Positions 3,737 to 59,057 of a DNA stretch of 64,000 nt are shown one piece after another. The DNA is taken from the NCBI GenBank assembly GCA_009778595.1, contig WRJI01000002.1:1-64000 (forward strand), written 5' to 3'. Numbering within the stretch: position 1 is the stretch's first letter; the number at the start of each line of letters is the position of its first letter. The notes under the pieces were generated by a model. That model was not told the origin of the DNA. It saw only the letters and a list, made by a program, of their open reading frames with translations, and ran no database searches. Source of the DNA: Peptococcaceae bacterium (GTDB taxonomy: Bacteria; Bacillota; Desulfitobacteriia; Desulfitobacteriales; Syntrophobotulaceae). The translations under genes and the position numbers were made by a program.

Positions 3737-4298
3737 ATTCCCCTTTCAATCAATGAGTTGACCCCAAAGAAACGCATTCCGCAGAATACAATACATCTTT
3801 ATACATAATACCTCTAAATCCAAAAACCCGCAAATTCAATTGCGCTTATTGTACCTGTAATGACAACAGCCTCTATTCATTCTCCCTATGCCTTATTTCA
3901 TCAATCTCGATTGTCTTCAGCATAGCCACAAAAGTTTCATGACAATCATGGTGCCCTGCAAAATATGCCGTGAACTGATCTTTTGGGGATATGACTATAT
4001 ACCCTTTGTCGTATTTGTTGTCGTCAAGATCAAAGTAGACGCATTTACATCTGATTCAAAGTCAAAAGTCACTTTATAATTAATAACCACAACCATGATC
4101 ACAGTAATAAGCAATGCTAAAATGATGTATAGATTCATATTACTATATTGATGTATCTTATTATGTTGGCATATCGTCAATATACTAATCCTCCCCAGAC
4201 ATTGCAAAACCCGCCAAATCCCACAATTCATAGGATCTCGCAGGTTCCCGTTCACCCTCTCAGGCAATCCGCATTGGATCAAAAACCTGTCTACATAC

Positions 4299-4366
4299 TG
4301 GTGCCGAAGACCGGAATCGAACCGGTACGAGGGATTAACCTCGCGGGATTTTAAGTCCCGAAGTGT
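4299..4366 (-). tRNA. Partial tRNA-Leu(TAA) 3' half; prophage attachment-site remnant
   Basis: Minus strand reads CGGGACTTAAAATCCCG (anticodon arm, TAA), variable arm, GGTTCGATTCCGGTC (T arm), TTCGGCACCA; 5' half (acceptor/D arm) absent. Confidence 0.8.
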
Positions 4367-4695
4367 CAAAAAAAACAAAATCAGCCCACATCAAGGCGTT
4401 TGAGTATTATTCAAAAATGGCTATCCAAGCCGATATTGCGGCATGAGCGATTTCCGTATAAGTATACTTGCATGCTATACACCGATTCTGTGGCGTGCTC
4501 GGGGGTCAATTCGGGGGTCAATTCGTCCTATATATGATATGCTAGACCAGATTCTAAATCACTAAATTCTTGATAGGATTTAATGTGTGTAGCTAGTGAT
4601 TTCCTTTGTCATTTCGAGTGACTTCCTCTGGGTCTATGTAGGGGAGCCGGGCAACCGGCTCATTGGGGGGTGTAATATGTGACCTTTGTGCTTGC

Positions 4696-4724
4696 GAAGA
4701 TGACGGCTAAAACAATCGGTGATC
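4696..4724. repeat. Direct repeat copy 1 (29 nt) flanking solitary CRISPR repeat
   Basis: gaagatgacggctaaaacaatcggtgatc, identical to 4767-4795. Confidence 0.95.
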
Positions 4725-4761
4725 GTTGCAATGGGATCCCTCCCCGAAAGGGGTTTGAAAC
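4725..4761 (+). CRISPR. Solitary 37-nt CRISPR repeat
   Basis: gttgcaatgggatccctccccgaaaggggtttgaaac; reverse complement matches the 7255-7435 array repeat at 34/37 positions. Confidence 0.88.
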
Positions 4762-4766
4762 GCCTA

Positions 4767-4795
4767 GAAGATGACGGCTAAAACAATCGGTGATC
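4767..4795. repeat. Direct repeat copy 2 (29 nt); with gccta upstream forms a 34-nt spacer-length segment 4762-4795
   Basis: Identical to 4696-4724. Confidence 0.95.
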
Positions 4796-5228
4796 TCAGG
4801 AGTATTTCCTGGTGATCTGGGTGTGGGTGGTTTCCAATTTCATCACTTGCGATTACATAGCAGTGGGCTGCTGTTTGGCTGATAACATCGATGTCATCTC
4901 TAAATGATTTTAAAGCGTGGGAGTGGAGAGGATCGTCGTCTATTATATGCCAGGCTGACGTCCCATCTAATGTCGGGAGCAATTCGTATTCATCCGTGCC
5001 AAATTCTGGAAAGCTCCTTTCATCTTCTCTCTCCGAATTGTCTTTACTGTCTTCGCATATTTCGCCAATTTCGCGATCTTTGTTCTCGAACCTAATCCCG
5101 ATCCCTCCGACATAATAGTAATCATCCTCATACCGAGCATACGTTTCCATGATTTTTGTAATCATTTCAGCTTTTGTCATTTCGTGTGCCTCCTCAAATT
5201 TTTGTATTACCAATCCCTTGATAATACT

Positions 5229-6733: not shown

Positions 6734-6789
6734 TCCTGCTCCCCTACATAGCCCCACAGCGGGGCGAAAATAAGAGGAGGAATACCACA

Positions 6790-7023
6790 ATGACAAAGTT
6801 TGAACCAGGAAAAAGGTACCAGACCAGAAGTATATGCGACCACAACTGCATCTACACAATTCTGGTTCTGGATCGTACGGACAAGACAATCGTCTTTTCC
6901 GACGATGGGCGTATACGACGCTCGAAGATCCGCGTTGACAAAGACGGCGAATACTTGATACCGGATCGGTATTCGATGGCTCCTGTGTATCGAGCACACA
7001 GGGATCACGTCAAGGGGTTTTAA
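6790..7023 (+). CDS. Hypothetical small phage protein
   Basis: RBS aagaggaggaat; ORF between two copies of the intergenic hairpin motif. Confidence 0.55.
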   Translation: MTKFEPGKRYQTRSICDHNCIYTILVLDRTDKTIVFSDDGRIRRSKIRVDKDGEYLIPDRYSMAPVYRAHRDHVKGF

Positions 7024-7221
7024 GCCCCTTACATAGCCTCACAAGAGGCGATAAATGAAAGGAGATAGCGAGATGATGACACAAACAAAGCTTGCGAAAA
7101 TCAGGAGAGAGTCAGGGGTAAAGGATCTGGAATACCTTCCGGATCTCTGGAAGGTGGAATACAGGGCATACGAAAGATCCCTCCAGAACGATGCTGAGGC
7201 ATGGGTAAGACCAGACACGCT

Positions 7222-7254
7222 GATTCCGTGGGCGGAAGCCCCAGAATGTGCTGT
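7222..7254. repeat. Target duplication copy 1 (33 nt)
   Basis: gattccgtgggcggaagccccagaatgtgctgt, identical to 7436-7468. Confidence 0.97.
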
Positions 7255-7435
7255 GTTTCAAACCCCTTTCGGGGAGGGACCCTGTTGCAACGACCGTGAT
7301 CGGGCCTATAGTCGATATGCTCAAAAAGTTTCAAACCCCTTTCGGGGAGGGACCCTGTTGCAACTTCAAAGTCAGGGGCCTGTGCATACGCATACAGGGT
7401 TTCAAACCCCTTTCGGGGAGGGACCCTGTTGCAAC
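7255..7435 (-). CRISPR. Mini-CRISPR array: 3 identical 37-nt repeats, spacers of 36 and 34 nt
   Basis: gtttcaaacccctttcggggagggaccctgttgcaac at 7255-7291, 7328-7364, 7399-7435; spacers 7292-7327 and 7365-7398. Strand assigned from the GAAAC-3' end typical of crRNA 5' handles. Confidence 0.95.
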
Positions 7436-7468
7436 GATTCCGTGGGCGGAAGCCCCAGAATGTGCTGT
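7436..7468. repeat. Target duplication copy 2 (33 nt)
   Basis: Identical to 7222-7254. Confidence 0.97.
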
Positions 7469-7897
7469 GGACTGGGAGGAGTGGGACGGTGTGGAACCTG
7501 CCATCACTGATGGATGGGTTTATGTCGAACGTGAGTTCGATGGTTACGTAGTACTAGAAACAGATCTTTACACTCAGGTCTGGAAGGAATCCTGTCTACA
7601 AACCGGATGGGGCCACGCTTGCCCAACCGGAGGCACATCCTCCGGGTGGAAGCCCGATTACTTTACCACTGATGACGATGAAGTCATCTATCTTGTGAGC
7701 GGGTAACCGCTCCTACATAGCCCCAAAAATGGGGCGAATATCACAATGGGGAGAAGAACAAACCAAATCCAAATGGGCCCCTGTGGGATCATGGTCAACT
7801 ACTTTTTAAGGGAGGAAAGGAGGTGAGGGAAAAATGCCTGAGTAGGAGGAGGATCGGGAAGACGCTCATTTTAACGAAAGATAAGGAGGATACCACC

Positions 7898-8380: not shown

Positions 8381-8433
8381 TTCGTATCCTCCTCTTATTT
8401 TTCGCCCCATTTGGTAGATGGGAATTAACCGAT

Positions 8434-8652
8434 TTGTGGACCGGTACCATCTTCGCGGTAACCCAGACGAGGAGAGCGATGGAGTCTGTGTCGCTTGATA
8501 GGCTTCTCAAACTCAGGGGAACGCCTGAGTACGATGAGAAATGGCAGGAGTTTTACGATCTCCTCCCTCCCCCAGACACAGAGGTGTACTATGAGACACC
8601 GGAGGAGGCAGCTGCGCGAATTCAGCTGATCCCAGTCAACGGGAGGGGGTAA
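8434..8652 (+). CDS. Hypothetical small phage protein
   Basis: ORF followed by hairpin/ACATAGCC motif. Confidence 0.45.
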   Translation: MWTGTIFAVTQTRRAMESVSLDRLLKLRGTPEYDEKWQEFYDLLPPPDTEVYYETPEEAAARIQLIPVNGRG

Positions 8653-8708: not shown

Positions 8709-9698
8709 ATGTATGATTTCGTGGTCATCGACCCTCGTGCCAATGAGGAAACAGAAAGGATGTTCCAGAACCCCGTTTATGGGGTAGAGATCACCATCCC
8801 GGCGCTCGCGGAGCGCTGCGTTTGGAACCTTGACCACCACGGGGTGAATGTTGGTCTCCCACCTGCCATTGAGCAGGCGCTGACATGCAAGCTCCCGCCG
8901 GAAGGGGCGACTATCGCAACGATACGCCCAGACCTAGATAGCGTTGGATCCATGGCGGTAATGGCCAGGAGGGCTGAATGGGATGAGGGGAGACCAGTGA
9001 CCGGGTTAGGAGACTGGGAAACCAATCTCAGTCTGGACCTTCATTGGTCTGAAACAATGTTCCAGACCCTAGCCTTCAGAGATAGAGTTCTGAAAGTCGC
9101 TACCGCTGACGCAGGCGCGACGGCAGGGGAATGGAGACCCCTTAATCTGCCATCAAGGAGCACCCCATGGCCTGAAGCGGTCGCGGCAAGCGACCGACAA
9201 GACCTTTCTGCCATTGCTCTTGCTGTCAGCGATTACAAAGTCCCCCTCGTGGAGAGGGTGGAATGGATGCGACAATGGCTTCTTTCCGGCGCAGAGCCGG
9301 AAGGATACCGGGATAAGGCCAACTCGGACCGGCAAGGGTTAATCAAAGCCCTTGAGGACGGGACGATCAAGGTCACCCACGACGGTGGTTGCGTCGCTGT
9401 CGTGGAATCAAGTCATCGCAGCGCGATGACCATCGGGTATTCGTTGGCACCTGTTGTGGTTGCCATCAATCCCACCTTTTCGTTTGCTGGGAACCCCCCT
9501 GTCAGGAAGATCACGATCTGCCAGTACTCGGCTGGCTATGTAGATCTCCAAGCGGTGTTTGCAGCCCTCTCCAACCTTGAGCCAGGTTGGGGAGGAACAG
9601 ACACGATAGGCGGGAGCCCACAAGGGGCAGCCTCGGTGCTGTCTGCCGAAGAAATAATCGCAGCAGTAACCACAGCAACAAGGGCCACTGTCGGTTGA
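8709..9698 (+). CDS. DHH/DHHA1-like phosphoesterase
   Basis: NLDHHG, IRPDLDSVGSMAVMA and C-terminal TIGGSPQGAASVLSAEEI resemble DHH and DHHA1 motifs. Confidence 0.55.
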   Translation: MYDFVVIDPRANEETERMFQNPVYGVEITIPALAERCVWNLDHHGVNVGLPPAIEQALTCKLPPEGATIATIRPDLDSVGSMAVMARRAEWDEGRPVTGLGDWETNLSLDLHWSETMFQTLAFRDRVLKVATADAGATAGEWRPLNLPSRSTPWPEAVAASDRQDLSAIALAVSDYKVPLVERVEWMRQWLLSGAEPEGYRDKANSDRQGLIKALEDGTIKVTHDGGCVAVVESSHRSAMTIGYSLAPVVVAINPTFSFAGNPPVRKITICQYSAGYVDLQAVFAALSNLEPGWGGTDTIGGSPQGAASVLSAEEIIAAVTTATRATVG

Positions 9699-11142: not shown

Positions 11143-11234
11143 ACATATCACCTCCTTTCCTCCTTGACCAAGTGACCTCCCGGCGGCACAGCCCTCCTTG
11201 GCTATGTATGGGGACGGGATCCGTCCCCTTGGGG

Positions 11235-11405
11235 CTAGTAGTCCTCTGGGACTGTTGGCCACATTTGGATCCAGGAGTTGCCCCCATCATCCCATGCGAC
11301 CAAGGCTCCGTTGCTGGCTACTGCGGTTTGATCCATGTCCGAGTATGGCTTGATTGCCGTCCCGTCGATCTCAACCTCAACCCCGTTGACCTCGATAACC
11401 TCCAT
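11235..11405 (-). CDS. 56-aa small protein MEVIEVNGVEVEIDGTAIKPYSDMDQTAVASNGALVAWDDGGNSWIQMWPTVPEDY
   Basis: RBS gaggaggtgaaac before ATG; ends before hairpin+ATACATAGCC; below the ORF track cut-off. Confidence 0.6.
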   Translation of the reverse strand: MEVIEVNGVEVEIDGTAIKPYSDMDQTAVASNGALVAWDDGGNSWIQMWPTVPEDY

Positions 11406-13339: not shown

Positions 13340-13553
13340 GAGGAGGTACAACGAGAAAACGTATCTCCGAGTACAAGCGTCCCTCCCGAAGGGGCTTGTA
13401 CAAACTCTCAGGGAAGAGATATCAAAAGATGATGACATGCATTTGGCGCGCTTGATAAAGGACGCAATCGAGAAGTACCTCCTCACGAGGGGGTACACAA
13501 CAGAAGAAGTTGATGATATGTCTGGAAAAAATTACATCCCAAAGGGGAAGTAA
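13317..13553 (+). CDS. Arc/RHH-like small protein
   Basis: YLRVQASLPKGLVQTLREEISKDDDMHLARLIKDAIEKYLLTRG. Confidence 0.5.
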   Translation: MATSTIVKRRYNEKTYLRVQASLPKGLVQTLREEISKDDDMHLARLIKDAIEKYLLTRGYTTEEVDDMSGKNYIPKGK

Positions 13554-28070: not shown

Positions 28071-30681
28071 CTGCCATCACCCTTACCCAATTAACGGAAA
28101 CGTTTGATCGTTGTCCGTAGAGATAATACGATTGTGATACTGTTACATCGACCGGCAACGGGTCTTCCCACGGGAGCCTCATGATTACATATCCTCTATA
28201 AGACGAAAGATCCTTGATATCTCTAATGGAGCAGCACTCCGGAACATCGAGAAAGTTGTCTCGGAACGCAGTCCCTGACACCGTCCCATTATACTCGTCT
28301 GATGATCCGTAAAATATCAGAGGTGCCGGATCGTCTGACGCCGTCGGGAAGATATCGCTCGAATGTTTAACCGTCTCCGTATACGCCAAATCCAGTACCA
28401 CCGCCGCCACAGACCGGTAATTTTGTCCAAAGTTAAAGAACGCGGCCCCATATGATGGGATATTCACCGGTACAGCAAGCCTCGATGTTACTCCTGTGGC
28501 TGTGTACGCGACAAACACATACTCAAAGTCTTGGTCTAGCGGCGGGTATAGGTCTTTGAACCCAGATCCCGATGGTGCTTGGTCCAGCAGGAGCACGAGC
28601 CTTCCATCAGCGTGTCTCCGATAGATACCTACGGCGGCTGTCTTCCCTGTTGGAATAGCAATCGGGGTTGGCATTCGCAATCGGTTCGTTGCCGACGAGT
28701 TGCCCCCTGTTGATGCTGAGATGGTCCCTATTACCCATGGTCCGGGATAGGTCTCATCTCCATACACCAACACAAACGATTCCAGATCATCCTCTGTTAT
28801 CTCCTGGTCTGTTCCTGCTACCCTTTTCGCAGCGCTTACACGAAAGTACTTAGCTCCTTCTGGGACATTGAGATAGAAAGGCCCTGGGCTTCCTGTAACA
28901 TTCTGTCCCTCTAGGTTGGAGGATGTTATCCAAGAGCTGTTTGCGGTGGTTTCGTAAAAATGGAAGGAAATAAACACTTGGTTCTCTCCATCCATGCGAA
29001 CAACAAGAGGCTCTATGGCCGTGTCTACTCCTGGGTCGCCTGCGATCACAAGCAACGCCGCTGATCCTGTATCCTCATCGATATCTATCTGGTAATCAGG
29101 CAAAGGTGGCGGGGTGTAGTCGATATATAGCGGTATCTCTGCAATTGCCGTTAGCGACGATGACGATCTGACCTCGATCCGGAGGGTGTAAGTTTGTAGA
29201 TTCTCCGGCAAAAACTCAGCGCTTGTTATGCTGAAGTTCGTTGCGTTCCCCGTCTTGCGGTACGCCTCGGACCCTCCATCTGTTATAAGTGAGACAACGG
29301 CAGAAACCATCGTCCCTGATATATCGCTGTAGCTGAACGCCCCTGCAATAGGGACATCTGTGATCGGTGATACTGGCGTTATTATCGATATCTGCGGGAC
29401 TTGGCACACCTTAAAGCTAAAGCTTGCTGACCATACCCCGTAGTTTGCGTGCGCTCCTTTTGTCCTGACTTGCCACACCACAGAAGCGTTTACGGCAAAC
29501 CCGTTTACCATTGCATACGTCTGGGATGATCCCGATATGGCAACCGTTGTCCATGTGCTCCCGTTATTGGTTGAATACCTTAGTTCTGCGTCCTCTTGCT
29601 GGCTCCCATCAATTGGGTTGTGTTGCCAAGCAAATCTTATCCCTTCGGTTAGTTTTACGACACTTCCTGATGCTGGAGCAGTTAGTGTCGGTGCCGCCGG
29701 AGCTACGATAGTCACAACTGCGTTCGACGTCCCCGACCATGCTGAGTAAAGACTTCCTCTGGTGTTTCTGACTTGGTAGTAAAACGTCCCCCCACCTGGG
29801 GATGTGTCTATGGTTGTTATGTTTGCCCCTGAGATCGCCGTCGCAGGCCACCATGTCGTTCCGTTCGTTGAGACACGCCATTCCGTTGCTGTTTGTGTCG
29901 CCCCCATATTTGTAAATGTGAGCCGCACCGTGTCCGCGTCCACCCTCGCTGCTGTTGGCGTCCCTGGTGCCATAGGGGTGTTGTAGGTCGCTGCGCTTGT
30001 GTTGGAGTACCCTGACTTGTTCCCATAGAAATCTGCCCTCACCCTGTAAGAGTAGGAGCAGTTTGTTACACAGCTTGTGTCGCTGTACGATGTTACAGCC
30101 GAGTTGGTTGATAAACTCGCGATCTGAGTCCACGCATGCCCGTTTATCGATCTTTCTACAAGAGCCGTCCCATATGGGTTTGACGTATTTGTGTACGTCC
30201 ACGACAAGTTGTTTTGACTGTCTGACACCCGTGTGTGAGTTAGCCCTGTCGGCGTCGCCGGTGTCCGTTGGATTGTTGGGAGGGCTTGCGAAAAGCTTCC
30301 CGAGGGATTTACATACCCACCCCATGAGGAGTTAACGCCCCATTTCCATGACACGGTTATAGTCTTGGCCCCGGAATGATCATGGGGTACAACGAAGCTT
30401 TGTTCCTCTGCAATCCAATATGGGCCCGCTGTGTACGGAATCGCCCCATTTATCGCCCTAGATGTTGGTGATGCCCCTGCCACACCAAGCGAAGACCCAT
30501 AAACATCACTCCACGCGCCAATGTTGCCGGACGAGAGCGATACATACATGCCGAGATAGACAGTCGATGAGTTGGCGGCCTGATTCTGCGTTGACCGCAC
30601 ATACACGTATAAGTTGATCGTTGTGCCAGCTTGTGATTTTGCGGACTTTACATGTGTTGCGGACCCCCCAGACATCGCCAT
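28054..30681 (-). CDS. Large tail tip protein with fibronectin III-like repeats
   Basis: NNLSWTYTNTSNPYGTALVERSINGHAWTQIASLS, repeated beta modules. Confidence 0.75.
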   Translation of the reverse strand: MAMSGGSATHVKSAKSQAGTTINLYVYVRSTQNQAANSSTVYLGMYVSLSSGNIGAWSDVYGSSLGVAGASPTSRAINGAIPYTAGPYWIAEEQSFVVPHDHSGAKTITVSWKWGVNSSWGGYVNPSGSFSQALPTIQRTPATPTGLTHTRVSDSQNNLSWTYTNTSNPYGTALVERSINGHAWTQIASLSTNSAVTSYSDTSCVTNCSYSYRVRADFYGNKSGYSNTSAATYNTPMAPGTPTAARVDADTVRLTFTNMGATQTATEWRVSTNGTTWWPATAISGANITTIDTSPGGGTFYYQVRNTRGSLYSAWSGTSNAVVTIVAPAAPTLTAPASGSVVKLTEGIRFAWQHNPIDGSQQEDAELRYSTNNGSTWTTVAISGSSQTYAMVNGFAVNASVVWQVRTKGAHANYGVWSASFSFKVCQVPQISIITPVSPITDVPIAGAFSYSDISGTMVSAVVSLITDGGSEAYRKTGNATNFSITSAEFLPENLQTYTLRIEVRSSSSLTAIAEIPLYIDYTPPPLPDYQIDIDEDTGSAALLVIAGDPGVDTAIEPLVVRMDGENQVFISFHFYETTANSSWITSSNLEGQNVTGSPGPFYLNVPEGAKYFRVSAAKRVAGTDQEITEDDLESFVLVYGDETYPGPWVIGTISASTGGNSSATNRLRMPTPIAIPTGKTAAVGIYRRHADGRLVLLLDQAPSGSGFKDLYPPLDQDFEYVFVAYTATGVTSRLAVPVNIPSYGAAFFNFGQNYRSVAAVVLDLAYTETVKHSSDIFPTASDDPAPLIFYGSSDEYNGTVSGTAFRDNFLDVPECCSIRDIKDLSSYRGYVIMRLPWEDPLPVDVTVSQSYYLYGQRSNVSVNWVRVMADGLAI

Positions 30682-33600
30682 TATTTCACCATTCTTTCTT
30701 TGCGTAGCACTAATTCGGCCATCTTTATAAATGCCTGGCCGAGTTCGCTGTCCGAATCTATTTTCATATTACCTATGCTAAGGTTGTTTACTGTGGATTC
30801 TCCCTGTGTACTTGCAATAGGCGCAGCCGCAACACTATAAAAGGTCATTGGCGCCTCGGTAAACGCTGCCGACACTCTTTGGAACGCTTCCGGCATCTGC
30901 CCAATCCGTGCTGATATCCCTTCCGATATCTTTTCGACCTCTTCATACAGAGCGCTCTTATACGTCTCTATCCCATCAATAATCCCTTGAATGATGCTTT
31001 TCCCGTCTTCGTACGTGTCCGGAGCTATATTGATGTCGCCTATATCGAGGTCTTTGGCCTCTAATGCGTCCAGTCTGTCCACGCCTTCCTCGGCAATCGC
31101 CTCAACGGATCCCAAGAACTCTGCCCTCTTTGCCTTGATCCCTTCTATAAGGCCGAGTACGAAGTATTCAGCTCTTTCCGCTGCGACCTTTGATGGTGAG
31201 TGCTCAGCCCACACCTTCGACAACATGCTAACAGCTGCAGACGCAATGCTGGAAATCGTGCCTAGGAAAGACGACCTCTTGCTTTCGGCTCCCCTTGTCG
31301 CTCCCGCGATAAGGTTTGACCCTGCCGAAGTCCCGTCCATCCGTTCTAGCGTTGCCTGGGCATCTTCTCTGACCGATCCCACCGTTTTGCTTAACGTCTT
31401 TGCTTGTATGCTTGCCTCGGTGTTCGCTTTCCCCATGAGGTTATATCCAGCTTTTGTTCCGTCCATAGATTCAAGGGCAGTTTGTGAGTTTTTAGATGTT
31501 TTCGTGACCAAGTCAACGACCTCGACACCTTTGGACTTAGATTCCTTCACGAGCTCAGCCCATGTTTTCCCGTTCAGGTCTATCATGCCGCCGCTCATAT
31601 CCGCCAAGGTCTTCAGAACATCGTCTTTGGTCATCCCCATATGGAAGGCAATATCATTTAGTTCTTTTCCGCCGTCTGCCGTCATCCGTTTAAACGCCCT
31701 TACGGCGCTATCAGCGCCTTCCGGAACCCTATTGACCAAAACATCGTATATGCTCAGAGATTTGTCATTAACGGCGCTCTCTAGGTCTTCTATTGACATC
31801 TTGTTCTTCTCAGCGTAATCCCGTATAGCGTCCCCTGAAATACCCCAAGCCGTCTCTAGCCGCTCTATGGTTGTGGCAAACCTTACAAATGTTCCATCCG
31901 CCTTCGTAACGGTGTTGTCAGCTTGGACATACTCGTTTGTTGTTTTCCCCAATGCTTCTCTGTAGATATCCAAGGCTTCGCGACTTTTTGTAAGCGCCAT
32001 CTGCTCGTCATTATGCTTGGCGAAGACAAGATCTAACGCCTTCGCCATCTCCATGGTGTAGAACAGGGTTTTACCCGTCTCCCTATTGGCATTGGCGGAA
32101 GCCACCAGAAATACATCCCAAAAGTCCTGTGTGTTCTTCGCTGCGTTTTGCTGTTCTACTTTGAAATCTATTAGGGCCGCCGTTGTATCATCCAAGAGTT
32201 TTTGGTATGCCTTTTGTTTTGCGGCCTCCCTAGCCGCCTCAGCATTCTTCTTGAGGGCTTCTGTGTTTGTGTGGATTTCTTGAGTTACGTCATAGATAGC
32301 GCCTTTCTCTGAGTCCCAGGCGATTAGCGTCTCCCCTTTTGCCTCGTTGTATCGCCTTGCTAATTCTGTCATCTCTTTGTCTAGGCTAGCTTTATCTTTC
32401 CCGGCGCTCACGGCCTTTTCCATCGCGTCGATGATTTCTATCTCTCGGTGGTACCTGCTATCCGCCATCTGCAGGCTTTTCTCGCTTTCTTTTTGGGCCG
32501 ACCTGAGAGAGTTGCTGAACTCATCCATGCTTCGCCTGTTGTCTTCGATCACTGTAGATAACTCTTTCATTCTCTTTGAAACACTTCCGGTTGTATCGCT
32601 AAAAATAACCAACGCAGCAACAACAGCCGCAATCCCCACCACTATCCACGTTAACGGGCAAGCAAGCAACGAAGCGTTAAGCCCGTATTGGGCCAGTGTC
32701 GCCGCCGCCTTTGCTCCCGTCTCTCTCACTTGGGCTTGCATTGCTATTGTCGTTGCCGTTGCCTCTGCCTTTTTTAGCCCTATTGTTACAGTATAGAGCG
32801 CTTGGGCAACCTTCATGGCCTTGTTTATCGTCTCCATTGCCGTGCTTGCCATTTGGAGCACTTTATACCCTGCCCAGGCGGCAAGGAATAGTTTTACGAG
32901 GGGAACGACGACGCCCATGTTGTTTGTCAGCACCTTGAGCGCTTTCCCCACGATATCAAATGCCTTTGATGCAGTGCTTTTGAAGCTGTTTATCCCTTTC
33001 TCTATGGATTTCCAGTCCATATTTTTCATGAGATCCTTCGCTCCGGCTGAAATCTTGGCAAAAGCTTTTGATATTATCGTTTTTGCTTCGTCTATGACTC
33101 CCGCAATACCGCCCCAGCGGGTCTCCCCAAGACCGTCATCTAGGGATGTGATAATGTCCGCCACCCCGCGCACGACAGCGTTCTTCATGTTCTGCCAGCT
33201 TGTTCCGATACCTGCCGTGGATGTTTTCGCGACTTCAGCGAACCCTCCGGTCTCTTCGCTCAGTAATATCATGCGGTCATTGAGCTCATCCATTGTGATA
33301 GATCCGTCTTTTAGCGCATCATAGAGCTTCCTTGCGCCATCTTTCCCGAACTCGAACGATTCAGCCAACTTCGACACGGCATATGGAGCTGTTTGAAGCA
33401 AGGTGTTCCAGTGCGCCATATCAACCTTGCCCTGCTGAAGCATCGTAATATAGGCGTCGCCGCCCCTTTGGGCTTTCTCGAAGTTTGCCCCTGATGCAAG
33501 TAGGGCATTATTTATGCCCAAAGTGGAGCGTGTAGCCGTATCAGCGTCTTTGCCCATGATAATGAACTGTTGCGACATGGCCACGGCTTCCGGCAATGTT

Positions 33601-33884
33601 GTCGGGAGCCCTTGGAGCCCCAACGACAACTTTTGTGTAGAAGCTGCCGCGTCTTCGGCAGACACCCCCATTTGTTGTAGAACTCTTGGGTAGGCGTTTA
33701 GGATATCGACGCGCTCGATTGCTCCCCCAACAGAGTTTTTTACCATGTTGAACCCGGCTTCCAAGACTTTGAACACAGCCAGGCCCTTGACGATATCGCC
33801 TAACCGGCTTGTGCCCTTCTCGAAATCTCCGGTGTCCAACTTGGTATCAAATTTCAAGGTGCCGTCGTAGGACATTTTGGTCAC
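30681..33884 (-). CDS. Tape measure protein
   Basis: 1067 aa; MAMSQQFIIMGKDADTATRSTLGINNALLASG; hydrophobic centre. Confidence 0.92.
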   Translation of the reverse strand: MTKMSYDGTLKFDTKLDTGDFEKGTSRLGDIVKGLAVFKVLEAGFNMVKNSVGGAIERVDILNAYPRVLQQMGVSAEDAAASTQKLSLGLQGLPTTLPEAVAMSQQFIIMGKDADTATRSTLGINNALLASGANFEKAQRGGDAYITMLQQGKVDMAHWNTLLQTAPYAVSKLAESFEFGKDGARKLYDALKDGSITMDELNDRMILLSEETGGFAEVAKTSTAGIGTSWQNMKNAVVRGVADIITSLDDGLGETRWGGIAGVIDEAKTIISKAFAKISAGAKDLMKNMDWKSIEKGINSFKSTASKAFDIVGKALKVLTNNMGVVVPLVKLFLAAWAGYKVLQMASTAMETINKAMKVAQALYTVTIGLKKAEATATTIAMQAQVRETGAKAAATLAQYGLNASLLACPLTWIVVGIAAVVAALVIFSDTTGSVSKRMKELSTVIEDNRRSMDEFSNSLRSAQKESEKSLQMADSRYHREIEIIDAMEKAVSAGKDKASLDKEMTELARRYNEAKGETLIAWDSEKGAIYDVTQEIHTNTEALKKNAEAAREAAKQKAYQKLLDDTTAALIDFKVEQQNAAKNTQDFWDVFLVASANANRETGKTLFYTMEMAKALDLVFAKHNDEQMALTKSREALDIYREALGKTTNEYVQADNTVTKADGTFVRFATTIERLETAWGISGDAIRDYAEKNKMSIEDLESAVNDKSLSIYDVLVNRVPEGADSAVRAFKRMTADGGKELNDIAFHMGMTKDDVLKTLADMSGGMIDLNGKTWAELVKESKSKGVEVVDLVTKTSKNSQTALESMDGTKAGYNLMGKANTEASIQAKTLSKTVGSVREDAQATLERMDGTSAGSNLIAGATRGAESKRSSFLGTISSIASAAVSMLSKVWAEHSPSKVAAERAEYFVLGLIEGIKAKRAEFLGSVEAIAEEGVDRLDALEAKDLDIGDINIAPDTYEDGKSIIQGIIDGIETYKSALYEEVEKISEGISARIGQMPEAFQRVSAAFTEAPMTFYSVAAAPIASTQGESTVNNLSIGNMKIDSDSELGQAFIKMAELVLRKERMVK

Positions 33885-36881: not shown

Positions 36882-37207
36882 ATGAATCTCACCACTTTCT
36901 TCTCCGTCCCCTCGTTTCTCAGGTATGCCTCGAATTCAGCTGCGTACTCGGCCAGGATGTTGCTGATAAACGAAACGCTCACCCCGTCTATGCTTTCTTT
37001 GTTGATTCCTTCGTAATACTGCCTTCTGTACGCCTTTAAGGCAGCTTCAACAGCTATGCTCTCCATTACACGCGGCAAGGATTTGACGCCAAGACGCAAA
37101 CAAATCCTGTCAGAGACTGTTATTATCAGCTCTTCCAGGAATTCGTCGCTTGGCGTCTCTTCCTCGGTTAACCGGATTTTAATCCTGTCTGTGAGTGCCG
37201 CTATCAT
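36878..37207 (-). CDS. Head-tail connector
   Basis: IAALTDRIKIRLTEEETPSDEFLEELIITVSDRICLRLG. Confidence 0.65.
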   Translation of the reverse strand: MIAALTDRIKIRLTEEETPSDEFLEELIITVSDRICLRLGVKSLPRVMESIAVEAALKAYRRQYYEGINKESIDGVSVSFISNILAEYAAEFEAYLRNEGTEKKVVRFI

Positions 37208-39717: not shown

Positions 39718-39977
39718 ACTTCCCCTTTCTCGTCCTTCGCCGCGTTATTGGCCTTGCTTTTCGCCTTTGCCTTCTTGTTCTCTCTTGCCTGACACGCTAC
39801 TACCGCTTTCTCAAGAGTTGTGCCGTGTGCTAGCCTTTTGGCATTACCAGTTTCGTCTCTCACATACGCTCCATAGCCGCCTTTTTTTGTGCCCCACATA
39901 TACTTGCAAACGACATACGTCTCTCCTTCGCCTTTGGCGGTAATGGACATCCCGCTACTTTCCCAAACAAGCATCAC
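39714..39977 (-). CDS. Hypothetical phage protein
   Basis: Co-directional, 4-bp overlaps. Confidence 0.5.
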   Translation of the reverse strand: MMLVWESSGMSITAKGEGETYVVCKYMWGTKKGGYGAYVRDETGNAKRLAHGTTLEKAVVACQARENKKAKAKSKANNAAKDEKGEV

Positions 39978-41299
39978 TTCGCCTCCTCCCCATTCAGTTT
40001 CTTCAACGCTCGTACATACTGCCCACTTCCTGACTCTCTTGCTTCTGCGATCCGCCGCAGCTCTGTCTTCACATCGTCAACAGCTGAAATGACATTTTGA
40101 TACAGCGTTTCCTCGGAAACGATCCCCCAAAGATTCGCCGCGATTGTGCTTTCTTCTAAGAGGTTCGCCGGGACATTTCTTGTGAATTTATACGTTATGT
40201 TTTGCCATTCCCCTGCAAGGGGAGACGATGGAATGTTCGCTATTGTTTTGTACCGGTTAATCATCGATGCTGTGAACTTGCGTTCTTTCGTCATCCCAAG
40301 GTTGCTCATCCCTTGGAGCTTGTATCGCAAGCTTACGCCAGAACTCCCTCCAAAGTCTTCATCGCCAATATTGGCTACAAGCGAAATCTGGAAAATAAGT
40401 TGCTCTAAGCGGTTTATTAGGTTCTCTTGCGTCCCGTCGCTTTCTGGTTTTGAAAGGAATTCTACTGTTATCTTATCAGAGTTCCCAATCTCTCCCTCGA
40501 TGTTGATAATTCGGCTATTCCTAAGCTCTGCCAGCGTTTTCTCATCGAGCGCTGCTCCAAGGATGGACAAGTATGCATCAGCGTAATAATCAACGTCATT
40601 CGCTTTTTCAGATAGCGCTTTGTTATAAGCGTTTATAAGTGTTTCGACGCTCTCAAAGGCCCCTATTCGTTCGGCGTTCTCAACATATTCGATAATCGGC
40701 ACAGCACAAAATCGCTGCGGCTTTTTGTGCAATAACCGTATCTCTCCGGCATCATCGCGAAAGTGGGTTATTTCTTCATCATCAGAAAACGTCCCTTCAA
40801 TATGTCCCTTTGTATTTTTGTAATAATGTACCCCATAAATCGGGTTTCCTACAATGCTTTCGTCATATATCAAGAAACAGTTTTGCGGAGACAGTGGGGC
40901 AATCCCCACGTTTGAGTTCTCATCCAAATAAAGCAACTCAAATGCGTGCCCGTAGATGGAGCACATTTTTGATAGTTCGGCGTTGTTGTCATCTTGGTTG
41001 TTGTACCGGTTTAAGAATTGCAAGAATGCCGCGACCACGTCATTTACGTGGAGCACTTTGACAGGGTTCCCCATGAAAAAGCCGTTGTAAGTGTCTGTGA
41101 TATACTTCGCGAAATTAACAACAAGCCGATTGTCTGGCTTGTACGCTGGTTTAGCCGCTTGAACCAGGATCGGGTGCTTGCCGTCATACATGTTTTTCAG
41201 CCTGGTATACCGCGTGCATTCTATTTCGTGTTGTTGGATAAACTTTGACATCTTTTCCGGCGTCAGTTGTTCACCTTCTGGTAATATAAACATGCTCAA
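39974..41299 (-). CDS. Portal protein (SPP1 gp6-like)
   Basis: YITDTYNGFFMGNPVKV, GVSLRYKLQGMSNLGMTKERKF. Confidence 0.92.
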   Translation of the reverse strand: MSMFILPEGEQLTPEKMSKFIQQHEIECTRYTRLKNMYDGKHPILVQAAKPAYKPDNRLVVNFAKYITDTYNGFFMGNPVKVLHVNDVVAAFLQFLNRYNNQDDNNAELSKMCSIYGHAFELLYLDENSNVGIAPLSPQNCFLIYDESIVGNPIYGVHYYKNTKGHIEGTFSDDEEITHFRDDAGEIRLLHKKPQRFCAVPIIEYVENAERIGAFESVETLINAYNKALSEKANDVDYYADAYLSILGAALDEKTLAELRNSRIINIEGEIGNSDKITVEFLSKPESDGTQENLINRLEQLIFQISLVANIGDEDFGGSSGVSLRYKLQGMSNLGMTKERKFTASMINRYKTIANIPSSPLAGEWQNITYKFTRNVPANLLEESTIAANLWGIVSEETLYQNVISAVDDVKTELRRIAEARESGSGQYVRALKKLNGEEAK

Positions 41300-41602: not shown

Positions 41603-42856
41603 TTAGATCCCCTCTGAAAACAAGCTTACTCTCACACCGCGCGGTTTTCGCCAGCCCTCGACGCCATACCTTAATGCGCTCATGGCATCATCAAAAATAG
41701 CCACTGGCGTATCTGTGTAGTCGCCGGTGACTTGGTCTCTTATCCATTTCCATTGTTGAAGTTCTTTGATCGTGTTGACGCAGGACGGGTGCACATAAAT
41801 ATTACGTTGCTTCAGCCAGTCTATTTGTGCGTTTATTGATCTTGATGTCCCGCGCTCCTTGCTAACGGCCACAGCCTTATATCCAGCGTTGTGCCACAAC
41901 CGCGTCCTGTCCGGCTCCGCCGACTCACACCACATGATAATATCTTTGGGGGCATTCGCTGCTTTGATAATCTCCATCGTATCCATCTGGGTCTTATAAA
42001 ACTCTTTGTATATATATACATCGTCGCCCTTCATCCCCAATTGCAAGATTACATTTGGGTGGTTGAACCCAAAGTCTTGGCCTTGGGCGACGTCTTCATA
42101 CTCCTCGGGATTTTGCGATATCTCTTCTACAGCCCAGTTTGTAAATATCAGGCCCCCGGACTCACCCCATTCGCCCAGACCATACACCAGGTATCCTTCC
42201 GGATCAACTTCTTTCCTGCGTAACATACGGTCTTTGTATGCATCATCAATAAATCGGTTGCTTAGGTACGTTGAGTGATGTGTGAGCGTGTCTTTGTCTC
42301 TTTTATCAAAGAATTTCTTCTTGATCCAGTGTGTGCTTGTTACCGGATTGAAGGTTCCTTTTATCTGGTAAAACAGCCCATCCGGCAGTTTCCCACGCAA
42401 GCGGTCGTCTAGTATCTCAAAGTCTGGCTGAGAAAGTTCCGTCATCTCTTCGACCCAAATGTCCGTTAGCTTTCCGTTCCCGAAGGTTATTGATTTCAGT
42501 TTCTCGCGCTGTTGTTCATCATTCGCCCCACGAAAGATGACGCAGTTCCCATTAACACACCGTAGCATAAGGGGGTTCTTGGTTATTTTCCAGAACTTCG
42601 CGAACATCGCACTGCCATCCGGGCCTGGTTGGTTTATGACCTTCACGAGTTCTGCGAAGGTGCTATCCCGATTTGACACCTCTGACTTTCTTACACATAG
42701 CAAGTTCCTTCCCTTGTCGGCCATGAGCCGCAAAATATACTGTTGCGCGGTATCGCAGGACTTCCCGGCCCCGGCGGATCCCTTCATGATCACATATCTG
42801 TGCTTGGATTTGTGCACCGGCAGAAAAATCTTGTTACTCTGAACTGTTATCTCCAT
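41603..42856 (-). CDS. Terminase large subunit (PBSX-like)
   Basis: Walker A GSAGAGKS, IWVEEMTEL, YVYGLGEWG; C-terminal nuclease region. Confidence 0.93.
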   Translation of the reverse strand: MEITVQSNKIFLPVHKSKHRYVIMKGSAGAGKSCDTAQQYILRLMADKGRNLLCVRKSEVSNRDSTFAELVKVINQPGPDGSAMFAKFWKITKNPLMLRCVNGNCVIFRGANDEQQREKLKSITFGNGKLTDIWVEEMTELSQPDFEILDDRLRGKLPDGLFYQIKGTFNPVTSTHWIKKKFFDKRDKDTLTHHSTYLSNRFIDDAYKDRMLRRKEVDPEGYLVYGLGEWGESGGLIFTNWAVEEISQNPEEYEDVAQGQDFGFNHPNVILQLGMKGDDVYIYKEFYKTQMDTMEIIKAANAPKDIIMWCESAEPDRTRLWHNAGYKAVAVSKERGTSRSINAQIDWLKQRNIYVHPSCVNTIKELQQWKWIRDQVTGDYTDTPVAIFDDAMSALRYGVEGWRKPRGVRVSLFSEGI

Positions 42857-50611: not shown

Positions 50612-51073
50612 TCACTTAACCTCCTCGAACTCAACCTCTACCCTCGGATGCTCTTTGTCGACATAGAAGTAATCTCTGAAGTTCTCAATATGCTTCCATC
50701 CGTCGTTTTCGAGGATTCCTTCGTTTACCAACGCGTCCTCAATGGCCTTTCTGGCAAACCCAACGATATTGCTTTTGTCGGTCAGCCTGTCTGGCACGTA
50801 CCAGTGGTAATGCATTACCACTCTTTTCCCAATTGGGACAAGCCCACTCATCTTGATATACCATGATATCTTGTCTTGGACGTCTTGTTTCATCGCATTC
50901 CCGCTGTTATAGTCGTTACGCCGCCTGGAATGCCCCCGCGCTTTGCAAGCGTTCAGAAACGCGTTCAGGCTTGGCAACCTCTCTTGTATGATCAGCTTCA
51001 TTGGTCTTCCTCCACAAGCTCTGCAAATGGTATTCCTTGGTCTTCGATCTCTTCTCCCTGCTTCCTCATCCAA
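50612..51073 (-). CDS. RusA-like resolvase/endonuclease
   Basis: LPSLNAFLNACK...DRLTDKSNIVGFARKAIEDALVNEGILENDGWKHI; likely internal start MKLIIQERL. Confidence 0.65.
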   Translation of the reverse strand: MDEEAGRRDRRPRNTICRACGGRPMKLIIQERLPSLNAFLNACKARGHSRRRNDYNSGNAMKQDVQDKISWYIKMSGLVPIGKRVVMHYHWYVPDRLTDKSNIVGFARKAIEDALVNEGILENDGWKHIENFRDYFYVDKEHPRVEVEFEEVK

Positions 51074-54966: not shown

Positions 54967-55689
54967 TCAGCCCCCTCCTCATTCCATCACTTTATCCGTC
55001 TATCCACTCCGGAGATGGGACCATCTCAGCGTAGCCAATAGCAGTATCTTTCGTTGAGATAATGACCTCTTTCCCGATCCACGACTGGTCTTTTACTTCT
55101 ATGGCTCTCGTATCCGTAGCGCTGTAATCTGTCTTCCCGAAGCAATCCTCCTTGACCCACTTATGGAATAAGCTCCGCGCCCCTCCCCTTTCTTCCGCGA
55201 GAACGTAATAAAACCATGGTTCACTAGCATACCTACACTTCCATATTTTCATGGCCTCTTCCCCTTTCGCCGCCTCTTCTCCGCCCTTGCGGCAGCTGCT
55301 GACACCCCTGCTTCCACTGCGCCGCAGAATCCATTCATGCACATAACCCCATAAACATCCCGGCTTATACACATGAGGCTATCATGATTGGCTTCCCCAT
55401 TCCCGGGCTATCTGCCCGTCAAGAATCTTAATCTTGAGCTTGTACACTTGAATAGCCTCCTTAGCGCTCTCATATAAGCTCAGCGCGATATCTCTCATCA
55501 TCCGTAGCTTGGCTATCTCCTGATCACCTTTGGCAAGATCGGACAGCAGCGTTACTGCCGTCCCCATTGCCCTTTGCTCTGTGATAAATTGGGCTTGTTG
55601 TACCCTGTAAGCATGTTCACACTCCGCGTATTTTTGGCCTCTGGCGCGATACTCGGCCAATGCTCTATCAAGATCTGTTTGGGTTGCTC

Positions 55690-58434: not shown

Positions 58435-59057
58435 TCATTCCATCGGTCTTCATCCCAGGAGTCGGGGACTACGGTATCCCCAACTTTGTATACAGTTTCC
58501 CTGTCGTTAACGGAAACAGCGCTGGCGCCCCAGGGATTACCATCCATGTCCGTGATCTCTAAGACCGTTGCCAAGGATGCCCTGCACTTTCTAGTTGTGG
58601 CGCTACTACGCTCAGCTTCTGCCGGGATAAGAAGTTCAACAATCACTGGCCGCGACGAGGCGATACCCATGCATTTCTTAAAAGCTGTAAAGCTCCCTTT
58701 TTCCGGGGGAACCATAGGGATAAATGGAACATTTTTTCCACCCTGGAGGTATGCATCCCGGAGGTTTGCGCCCCGGAGGTCTGCGTCCCGGAGGTTTGCG
58801 CCCCGGAGGTTTGCGCCCAGGAGGTATGCATCCCGGAGGTTTGCGCCCCGGAGGTCTGCGTCCCGGAGGTTTGCATCCCGGAGGTTTGCGCACAGGAGGT
58901 TTGCATTCCGGAGGTATGCGCCCCGGAGGTCTGCGCCCAGGAGGTCTGCATCCCGGAGGTTTGCGCACAGGAGGTTTGCGGCCTTCCCTCCTTCACCATC
59001 AATCCATTTTTTATGCTCTGCTAAAATGTCAATTAACTCGTCTTTTGTCATATCCAA
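58380..59057 (-). CDS. Pentapeptide-repeat protein with DUF5758-like C-terminus
   Basis: A(D/N)LRGA(Y/N)LRDA repeats; YKVGDTVVPDSWDEDRWNECSHGIHFFMSRQEA. Confidence 0.88.
   Translation of the reverse strand: MDMTKDELIDILAEHKKWIDGEGGKAANLLCANLRDADLLGADLRGAYLRNANLLCANLRDANLRDADLRGANLRDAYLLGANLRGANLRDADLRGANLRDAYLQGGKNVPFIPMVPPEKGSFTAFKKCMGIASSRPVIVELLIPAEAERSSATTRKCRASLATVLEITDMDGNPWGASAVSVNDRETVYKVGDTVVPDSWDEDRWNECSHGIHFFMSRQEAVDF

What the first reader, a model, noticed from the sequence alone, without database searches (positions are those of the whole stretch)
7222..7468. Mini-CRISPR array inserted in a phage gene with a spacer-length target duplication
Seen: three identical 37-nt repeats with 36- and 34-nt spacers lie between two identical 33-nt copies (7222-7254, 7436-7468) of phage coding sequence. 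The offset between copies is 214 = 3x37+36+34+33, i.e. exactly three repeat-spacer units if the duplicated phage sequence counts as the third spacer. Collapsing the duplication restores one reading frame (...LIPWAEAPECAV|DWEEWDGVEP...). Inference: a block R-S1-R-S2-R-S0, where S0 is a spacer against this very gene, entered by homologous recombination between spacer S0 and its protospacer. In the crRNA orientation the protospacer is preceded by TCC in the phage.
Basis: partly seen in the sequence, partly recalled or inferred. Interest (0 to 1): 0.93.

Follow-up and report, generated by a model that had tools for sequence, protein, structure and literature searches.

The report
CRISPR pieces inserted in targeted prophage
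A virus lying dormant in a bacterial chromosome carries, in two of its genes, short pieces of a bacterial CRISPR memory bank, each framed by two copies of the very viral sequence that the memory is aimed at, which looks like recombination between a CRISPR spacer and its own target and suggests how viruses come to own CRISPR repeats.

Summary
Three identical 37-nt repeats with 36- and 34-nt spacers sit between two identical 34-nt copies of prophage coding sequence (7222-7255, 7436-7469). There a single repeat (4725-4761), identical to the host's CRISPR repeat, is followed by a 34-nt spacer-like stretch (4762-4795) whose last 29 nt duplicate the phage sequence just before the repeat. Its first 5 nt differ, as expected for an imperfect spacer after a crossover.
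The contig holds a ~60.7-kb prophage in tRNA-Leu. The same genome bin holds a type III-D cas operon and an orphan array with the same repeat, in which 8 of 17 spacers match this prophage. Contig ends overlap by 123 nt, other exactly matching sites carry no insertion, and a de Bruijn simulation never gives these joints, so a simple assembly chimera is unlikely, though reads were not seen.
Best explanation: recombination between a spacer and its protospacer inserted repeat-spacer units, with type III tolerance of silent prophages giving time for it. Spacer-target recombination is known experimentally; this doubled natural scar was not found in the papers searched. Whether the pieces do anything is unknown.

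The parts
4296..4360 (+). attL: 65-bp identical copy of the tRNA-Leu(UAA) 3' part; left end of the prophage (attR is at contig position 64983-65047, just beyond the window)
4691..4724 (+). Event 2, phage copy of the protospacer (CTTGC + 29 nt identical to the spacer copy)
4725..4761 (+). Event 2, single CRISPR repeat GTTGCAATGGGATCCCTCCCCGAAAGGGGTTTGAAAC, identical to the commonest repeat of the host array on contig C94
4762..4795 (+). Event 2, 34-nt spacer copy (GCCTA + the same 29 nt), followed directly by phage sequence
4764..5213 (-). phage ORF whose end is altered by event 2 (71-nt insertion, frameshift; 11 C-terminal residues lost against the joined flanks)
7055..7706 (+). phage ORF interrupted by event 1 (214-nt insertion, frameshift); no PHROGs family
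7222..7255 (+). Event 1, first copy of the 34-nt target duplication
7255..7291 (-). Event 1, CRISPR repeat 1 (crRNA orientation is the - strand: GTTGCAACAGGGTCCCTCCCCGAAAGGGGTTTGAAAC)
7292..7327 (-). Event 1, spacer S1, 36 nt, no target found
7328..7364 (-). Event 1, CRISPR repeat 2
7365..7398 (-). Event 1, spacer S2, 34 nt, no target found
7399..7435 (-). Event 1, CRISPR repeat 3
7436..7469 (+). Event 1, second copy of the 34-nt target duplication
8427..8460 (-). protospacer of C94 spacer 13 (4 mismatches)
8797..8831 (-). protospacer of C94 spacer 10 (1 mismatch), no insertion
11201..11234 (+). protospacer of C94 spacer 3 (exact), no insertion
13351..13385 (-). protospacer of C94 spacer 12 (6 mismatches)
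32314..32346 (+). protospacer of C94 spacer 8 (exact) in the tape measure gene, no insertion
37016..37050 (+). protospacer of C94 spacer 7 (4 mismatches)
50793..50825 (+). protospacer of C94 spacer 4 (1 mismatch)
55469..55503 (+). protospacer of C94 spacer 9 (3 mismatches)
30681..33884 (-). tape measure protein (prophage marker)
39974..41299 (-). portal protein (prophage marker)
41603..42856 (-). terminase large subunit (prophage marker)

Best explanation
Both loci are scars of homologous recombination between a spacer in a CRISPR array of this bacterium's lineage and its protospacer in a resident ~60-kb temperate phage. A repeat-spacer block that contained the anti-phage spacer (R-P for event 2; R-P with two neighbouring spacers for event 1) recombined with the phage copy of P. 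The result is P-R-P and P-R-S1-R-S2-R-P. The block could have been an excised circle. It could equally have been a repair tract copied from the array that slipped back one or three units at the identical repeats; the two routes give the same product. Shown here: the sequence structure, its two occurrences, the matching array, and a type III-D operon in the same genome bin. Inferred: the recombination itself, its route, and that type III immunity, which needs target transcription, allowed array and silent prophage to coexist long enough. Each insertion shifts the reading frame of a small phage gene. The repeats lie antisense to those genes and have no recognisable leader, so I think they are at present passengers rather than working crRNA genes.
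For: Event 1 has spacer-length duplication with boundaries exactly at repeat edges. Event 2 has the same topology with one repeat; only 29 nt are identical, and the right copy carries 5 private bases next to the repeat, giving a 34-nt spacer inside the host's 33-36-nt range. That is what a crossover inside the identical 29 nt predicts. The event-2 repeat is identical to the C94 repeat, and the event-1 repeat is one base from the last C94 repeat. Eight of 17 C94 spacers match this prophage with 0-6 mismatches, against at least 10 for shuffled spacers, so spacer-target pairs did coexist in this lineage. The C93 contig has Cas10d, Csx10-type Cas5, Csx19, Cas7 and Cas6 next to a related array. Most protospacers are antisense to the genes they hit and have no shared 5' motif. 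Terminal contig overlaps are 123 nt and no k gives the joints in simulation. Literature: spacer-target recombination is reported experimentally (Varble 2019 and Watson 2018 as cited in PMC8616872); repeat-mediated spacer loss occurs in about 1 per 1,000-2,000 cells in Legionella (PMC8047081); type III tolerates silent prophages (Goldberg 2014 as cited in PMC6990116).
Against: There is a single metagenome-assembled genome, and no reads could be inspected. The IMG/VR copy is 100% identical over the compared part and begins at an ORF boundary, so it is probably the same assembly and not an independent witness. The source array holding P, S1 and S2 together is not in the bin, so the donor is inferred. 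No empty-site relative was found. Among 16 INPHARED phage repeat loci and 239 viral contigs sampled with two repeat-end patterns, none had the P-R-P structure, so it is not common.
Confidence: 0.75

Rival explanations
1. Assembly chimera: the phage and an array in the same sample share P, and the assembler (or a scaffolder or gap filler) walked from phage into array and back.
For: Any walk phage-P-R-...-R-P-phage through a collapsed graph has exactly this structure. The source is a metagenome bin, and the phage is heavily targeted by an array in the same bin, so shared words abound.
Against: Contig-end overlaps of 123 nt (C8/C140; both ends of C121) show a final word length far above 29-34 nt. 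An unbranched path cannot pass P twice or R three times at a word length below their length; in simulation no k between 21 and 123 made either joint, and from k=37 up the true empty site was recovered. The exactly matching sites of C94 spacers 3 and 8 are intact. Event 2 shares only 29 nt.
Confidence: 0.17
2. Cas1-Cas2 put the material there: off-target integration of a prespacer into the phage with a target-site duplication.
For: Two insertions with direct duplications of about 30 nt; CRISPR DNA is involved.
Against: By the established mechanism the duplication would have repeat length (37) and the insert spacer length. Here the duplication has spacer length and the insert consists of whole repeats. 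In event 2 the two copies differ at 5 positions, which a target-site duplication cannot give. No Cas1 gene was found in the bin, which is however only 91.6% complete.
Confidence: 0.02
3. The insertions are domesticated phage tools: a mini-array that aims the host type III-D complex at competing phages, and a solitary repeat that acts as an RNA anti-CRISPR. They arose by the same recombination but are kept by selection (an addition to, not a contradiction of, the best explanation).
For: Mini-arrays and solitary repeats with such roles exist (PMC6858448, PMC10651486). A type III-D effector and Cas6 that could process them are in the bin. S1 and S2 have no match in this prophage, so they would not hit the carrier.
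Against: There is no leader and no strong promoter in crRNA orientation close to either insertion. Both lie inside or at the end of genes, antisense to them, and shift the frame. No target of S1 or S2 was found. One copy of P next to the repeats keeps its phage flank, so the insertion does not even remove the target.
Confidence: 0.1

Closest known systems
Spacer-target recombination that moves CRISPR loci into phage (Varble et al. 2019, Watson et al. 2018; read here through the review PMC8616872)
   Same: Homology of a spacer with its protospacer as the crossing-over site; CRISPR DNA ends up in a phage genome.
   Different: [quoted passage not shown] Here one or three repeat units only are inserted, with the target duplicated, twice, in a natural prophage.
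Virus-borne mini-CRISPR arrays (Saccharolobus portogloboviruses SPV1/2, PMC6858448; Streptococcus thermophilus phages with 2-3 repeats between terminase genes)
   Same: Repeats close to the host's, 1-2 spacers, no cas genes in the insert.
   Different: The SPV arrays have leaders and known targets. The S. thermophilus arrays sit at one fixed intergenic site, differ in their spacers, and show no target duplication beside the repeats. Here the array interrupts a gene, is leaderless, and is flanked by its own target.
Solitary repeat units / RNA anti-CRISPRs (Racr, PMC10651486)
   Same: A lone complete CRISPR repeat in a prophage (event 2).
   Different: [quoted passage not shown] this one is in a gene end, antisense to it, and flanked by a spacer duplication that shows where it came from.
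Type III conditional tolerance of prophages (Goldberg et al. 2014, as described in PMC6990116)
   Same: Type III operon, spacers against a resident prophage, most protospacers antisense to genes.
   Different: Tolerance itself was not tested here; subtype III-D instead of III-A.

Membership tests
Phage-borne mini-CRISPR array | two or more copies of a host-type CRISPR repeat with 1-2 spacers, no cas genes in the insert | tested here: met
   event 1: three identical 37-nt repeats, two spacers; repeat one base from the last C94 repeat
Phage-borne mini-CRISPR array | spacers target related viruses | tested here: inconclusive
   no match for S1 or S2 in the bin, and no exact 20-mer in IMG/VR apart from the locus itself
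Phage-borne mini-CRISPR array | transcribed and processed into crRNA | not testable with these tools
   no expression data; no strong promoter-like site in crRNA orientation beside it
Solitary repeat unit / Racr | single complete repeat similar to the host's, no second repeat nearby | tested here: met
   event 2 repeat 4725-4761, identical to the C94 repeat; nearest other repeat 2.5 kb away
Solitary repeat unit / Racr | intergenic, behind a promoter, transcribed in crRNA sense | tested here: not met
   lies at the end of ORF 4764-5213(-) as judged from the joined flanks; no promoter-like site on the + strand upstream within 4300-4725; transcription itself not tested
Spacer-protospacer homologous recombination product | junctions fall inside a stretch identical between spacer and phage target; repeat edges coincide with spacer edges | tested here: met
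   34-nt and 29-nt identical stretches; repeat edges exact at both events
Spacer-protospacer homologous recombination product | the donor array with the same spacer exists in the host | tested here: inconclusive
   C94 array has the repeat and 8 other spacers against this phage but not these spacers; C93 array runs off its contig
Spacer-protospacer homologous recombination product | related phage without the insertion has the uninterrupted target | tested here: inconclusive
   no relative of the region in IMG/VR, INPHARED or the 25 genomes of the family
Cas1-Cas2 off-target integration | target duplication of repeat length around a spacer-length insert | tested here: not met
   duplications 34 and 29 nt around whole repeats; copies of event 2 differ
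Type III-D CRISPR-Cas (the host system) | Cas10d, Csx10-type Cas5, Cas7 paralogues, Csx19 | tested here: met
   contig C93, six adjacent genes

The most novel reading that the evidence does not exclude
Spacer-protospacer recombination is a general birth route of phage-borne CRISPR pieces. Under type III immunity, a silent prophage and the spacers aimed at it share a chromosome for many generations, so repeat-spacer units keep moving into the phage. One unit gives a solitary repeat, several give a mini-array, both frozen here before the tell-tale duplication has decayed.
Probability: 0.4. Interest if true: 0.85.

Novelty: new variant of a known kind. Interest (0 to 1): 0.74.

Why it matters
Phages and prophages carry mini-arrays and solitary CRISPR repeats that can attack competitors or jam the host's defence, and how these pieces enter phage genomes is open. 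Two papers suggest recombination with host arrays for bacterial phage mini-arrays (PMC6858448, PMC7099407) without, in the passages read, showing a junction. Here are two junctions that name the crossing-over site, the anti-phage spacer itself, and yield both kinds of product. It would mean that immune memory supplies the homology by which the phage captures pieces of the memory bank.

Tried and rejected
PAM reading of TCC: ten protospacers of this system have no shared 5' motif, and the operon is type III-D, so rejected. Cas1-Cas2 integration: rejected on lengths and on the mismatched copies. IMG/VR contig UViG_2820327087_000001 as independent witness: 100% identical over the 6.4 kb compared and starting at an ORF boundary, so probably the same assembly. 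Looking for the repeat, spacers S1/S2 or phage siblings elsewhere: nothing in the family, genome collection, IMG/VR or INPHARED; only terminase relatives at 57-67% identity, mostly in Clostridia. Survey for the P-R-P scar: 16 INPHARED repeat loci and 239 viral contigs found with two 14-mers of common repeat ends (most of these are chance 14-mer matches), none positive. Two apparent hits were a short unrelated duplication (L292) and an array spacer matching 10 kb away (L256). Repeats used for the INPHARED survey were recalled from memory and served only as search bait.

Full report
What is there. The three repeats (7255-7291, 7328-7364, 7399-7435) are identical, the spacers are 36 and 34 nt, and the block lies between two identical 34-nt copies of phage sequence (7222-7255, 7436-7469) with an offset of 214. 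Joining the two flanks gives a single open frame of 145 codons; as assembled the frame is shifted and stops at codon 152.

A second event. A search of the genome bin with the locus found one more repeat in the same contig, at 4725-4761 on the other strand. Reading around it shows the same topology with one repeat: phage CTTGC+29 nt (4691-4724), repeat, GCCTA+the same 29 nt (4762-4795), phage. If the right copy is a spacer of 34 nt, it is a normal length for this array (33-36 nt), with its first five bases differing from the phage target. A crossover within the identical 29 nt would leave the phage bases on the left and the spacer bases on the right, as seen. A target-site duplication would have given identical copies. 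Joined flanks again restore a longer frame; the insertion removes 11 C-terminal residues. In the whole 87.6-kb contig the flanks of these two blocks are the only direct duplications of 29 nt or more at 45-460 nt spacing, apart from low-complexity tandem runs and the CRISPR repeats.

What it lies in. The contig carries terminase, portal and tape measure genes and endolysin-type domains. A 65-bp copy of the tRNA-Leu(UAA) end at 4296-4360 matches the intact tRNA gene at contig position 64983-65047, so this is a prophage of about 60.7 kb, not a free phage. Both insertions lie within 3.2 kb of attL.

The host's CRISPR. Contig C94 has an array of 17 repeats without cas genes beside it. Its commonest repeat is identical to the event-2 repeat, and its last repeat differs by one base from the event-1 repeat. 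Eight of its spacers match this very prophage: spacers 3 and 8 exactly, 4 and 10 with one mismatch, 9 with three, 7 and 13 with four, 12 with six. Shuffled spacers never came below ten mismatches. Contig C93 has a type III-D operon (Cas10d, Csx10-type Cas5 fused to a Cas7-like part, Cas7s, Csx19, Cas6) next to the start of an array whose repeats share the last 18 bases, CCGAAAGGGGTTTGAAAC. No Cas1 was found, in a bin that is 91.6% complete. The protospacers share no obvious 5' motif. Those in clearly called genes are antisense to them, that is, the crRNA would pair with the mRNA; for spacers 3 and 13 the gene context is ambiguous. Both features fit type III.

Is it an assembly artefact? Contig ends in the bin overlap by exactly 123 nt in two cases (C8/C140, and both ends of C121), the mark of a final word length near 123. 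In a simulated graph of an intact phage plus an array R-P-R-S1-R-S2-R, no k from 21 to 123 produced either junction within a unitig, and from k=37 the empty site came out correctly. The simulation was single-stranded, with invented extra spacers, covered event 1 only, and says nothing about scaffolders or gap fillers. The exact-match sites of spacers 3 and 8 are as exposed to such an artefact but are intact. I therefore judge real DNA much more likely than a chimera, but reads were not available, and the IMG/VR entry with the same sequence is probably the same assembly.

How it works. The simplest account is homologous recombination between spacer and protospacer. A circle excised from an array by recombination between repeats, containing P, and integrated by one crossover in P, gives P-R-P if it holds one unit and P-R-S-R-S-R-P if it holds three. 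A repair tract copied from the array that slips back at the identical repeats gives the same. Loss of spacer-repeat units by recombination between repeats is frequent in one measured case (about 1 per 1,000-2,000 cells, PMC8047081). Long coexistence of array and target in one cell is expected under type III, which spares silent prophages (Goldberg 2014 as described in PMC6990116). The order of steps, the recombinase and the donor array are inferred. After the event one copy of P next to phage sequence keeps its original flank, so the insertion does not by itself remove the target.

Does it do anything? The insertions are in genes, antisense to them, with no leader and no strong promoter-like site in crRNA sense. 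S1 and S2 have no target in the bin, and no exact 20-mer in IMG/VR. I regard them as passengers; a role as mini-array or RNA anti-CRISPR is not excluded.

How common? Phage mini-arrays from INPHARED were fetched as a comparison: S. thermophilus phages with two or three repeats between the terminase genes, Listeria LP-101, C. difficile phages, satellites. None had the duplication beside the repeats. In SW18 the spacer is identical to a stretch of the phage's own superinfection-exclusion gene 196 nt upstream, but not in the P-R-P arrangement. A sample of 239 IMG/VR contigs by two repeat-end 14-mers had none either, although most of those are chance matches.

Compared with what is known. Spacer-target recombination carrying CRISPR loci into transducing particles is reported in laboratory work (cited in PMC8616872). 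That phage mini-arrays lacking host leaders might come from recombination with host arrays is stated as a suggestion in PMC6858448 and PMC7099407. Solitary repeats as RNA anti-CRISPRs are described in PMC10651486; the word 'recombination' does not occur in its main text. I found no paper in the library describing a repeat unit framed by its own target in a prophage, but most subscription papers, including Varble 2019 itself, were not readable. I file it as a new variant of a known kind.

Noticed in passing
L017 (contig C94) 7750-8924: Orphan array with 8 of 17 spacers against the resident prophage; the four leftmost repeats end in GAAGT/GAAAG/GAAAT instead of GAAAC, and for spacers 3 and 4 the deviating base matches the phage, so those repeats may be one nucleotide shorter.
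   Followed up: partly
L092 (contig C104) 3408-3442: Exact 35-nt target of C94 spacer 14 in another contig of the same bin, next to a helicase-like gene; possibly a second self-targeted mobile element.
   Followed up: partly
L109 (contig C121) 1-5050: Contig with a 123-nt terminal overlap, so apparently circular (about 4.9 kb); its four largest - strand ORFs have no PHROGs match.
   Followed up: partly
L069 (Streptococcus phage SW18) 449-478 and 645-674: A published phage mini-array carries a 30-nt spacer identical to the phage's own superinfection-exclusion lipoprotein gene just upstream: an apparent self-targeting spacer.
   Followed up: no
L068, L070-L074, L081, L082 (S. thermophilus phages): Mini-arrays at one fixed site between terminase genes with a different spacer in most phages and a truncated last repeat (28 of 36 nt); the spacer of phages 128, CHPC982 and CHPC1034 matches the terL start of relatives such as P7574, while CHPC982 and CHPC1034 carry a mutated version.
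   Followed up: partly
window 58745-58980: Tandem repeats with a unit rich in GGAGGTTTGC in the late region of the prophage.
   Followed up: no
window 6735-7040, 7700-7740, 11200-11235: Several phage genes are followed by a TACATAG motif and a GC-rich inverted stretch; C94 spacer 3 comes from one of these stretches.
   Followed up: no
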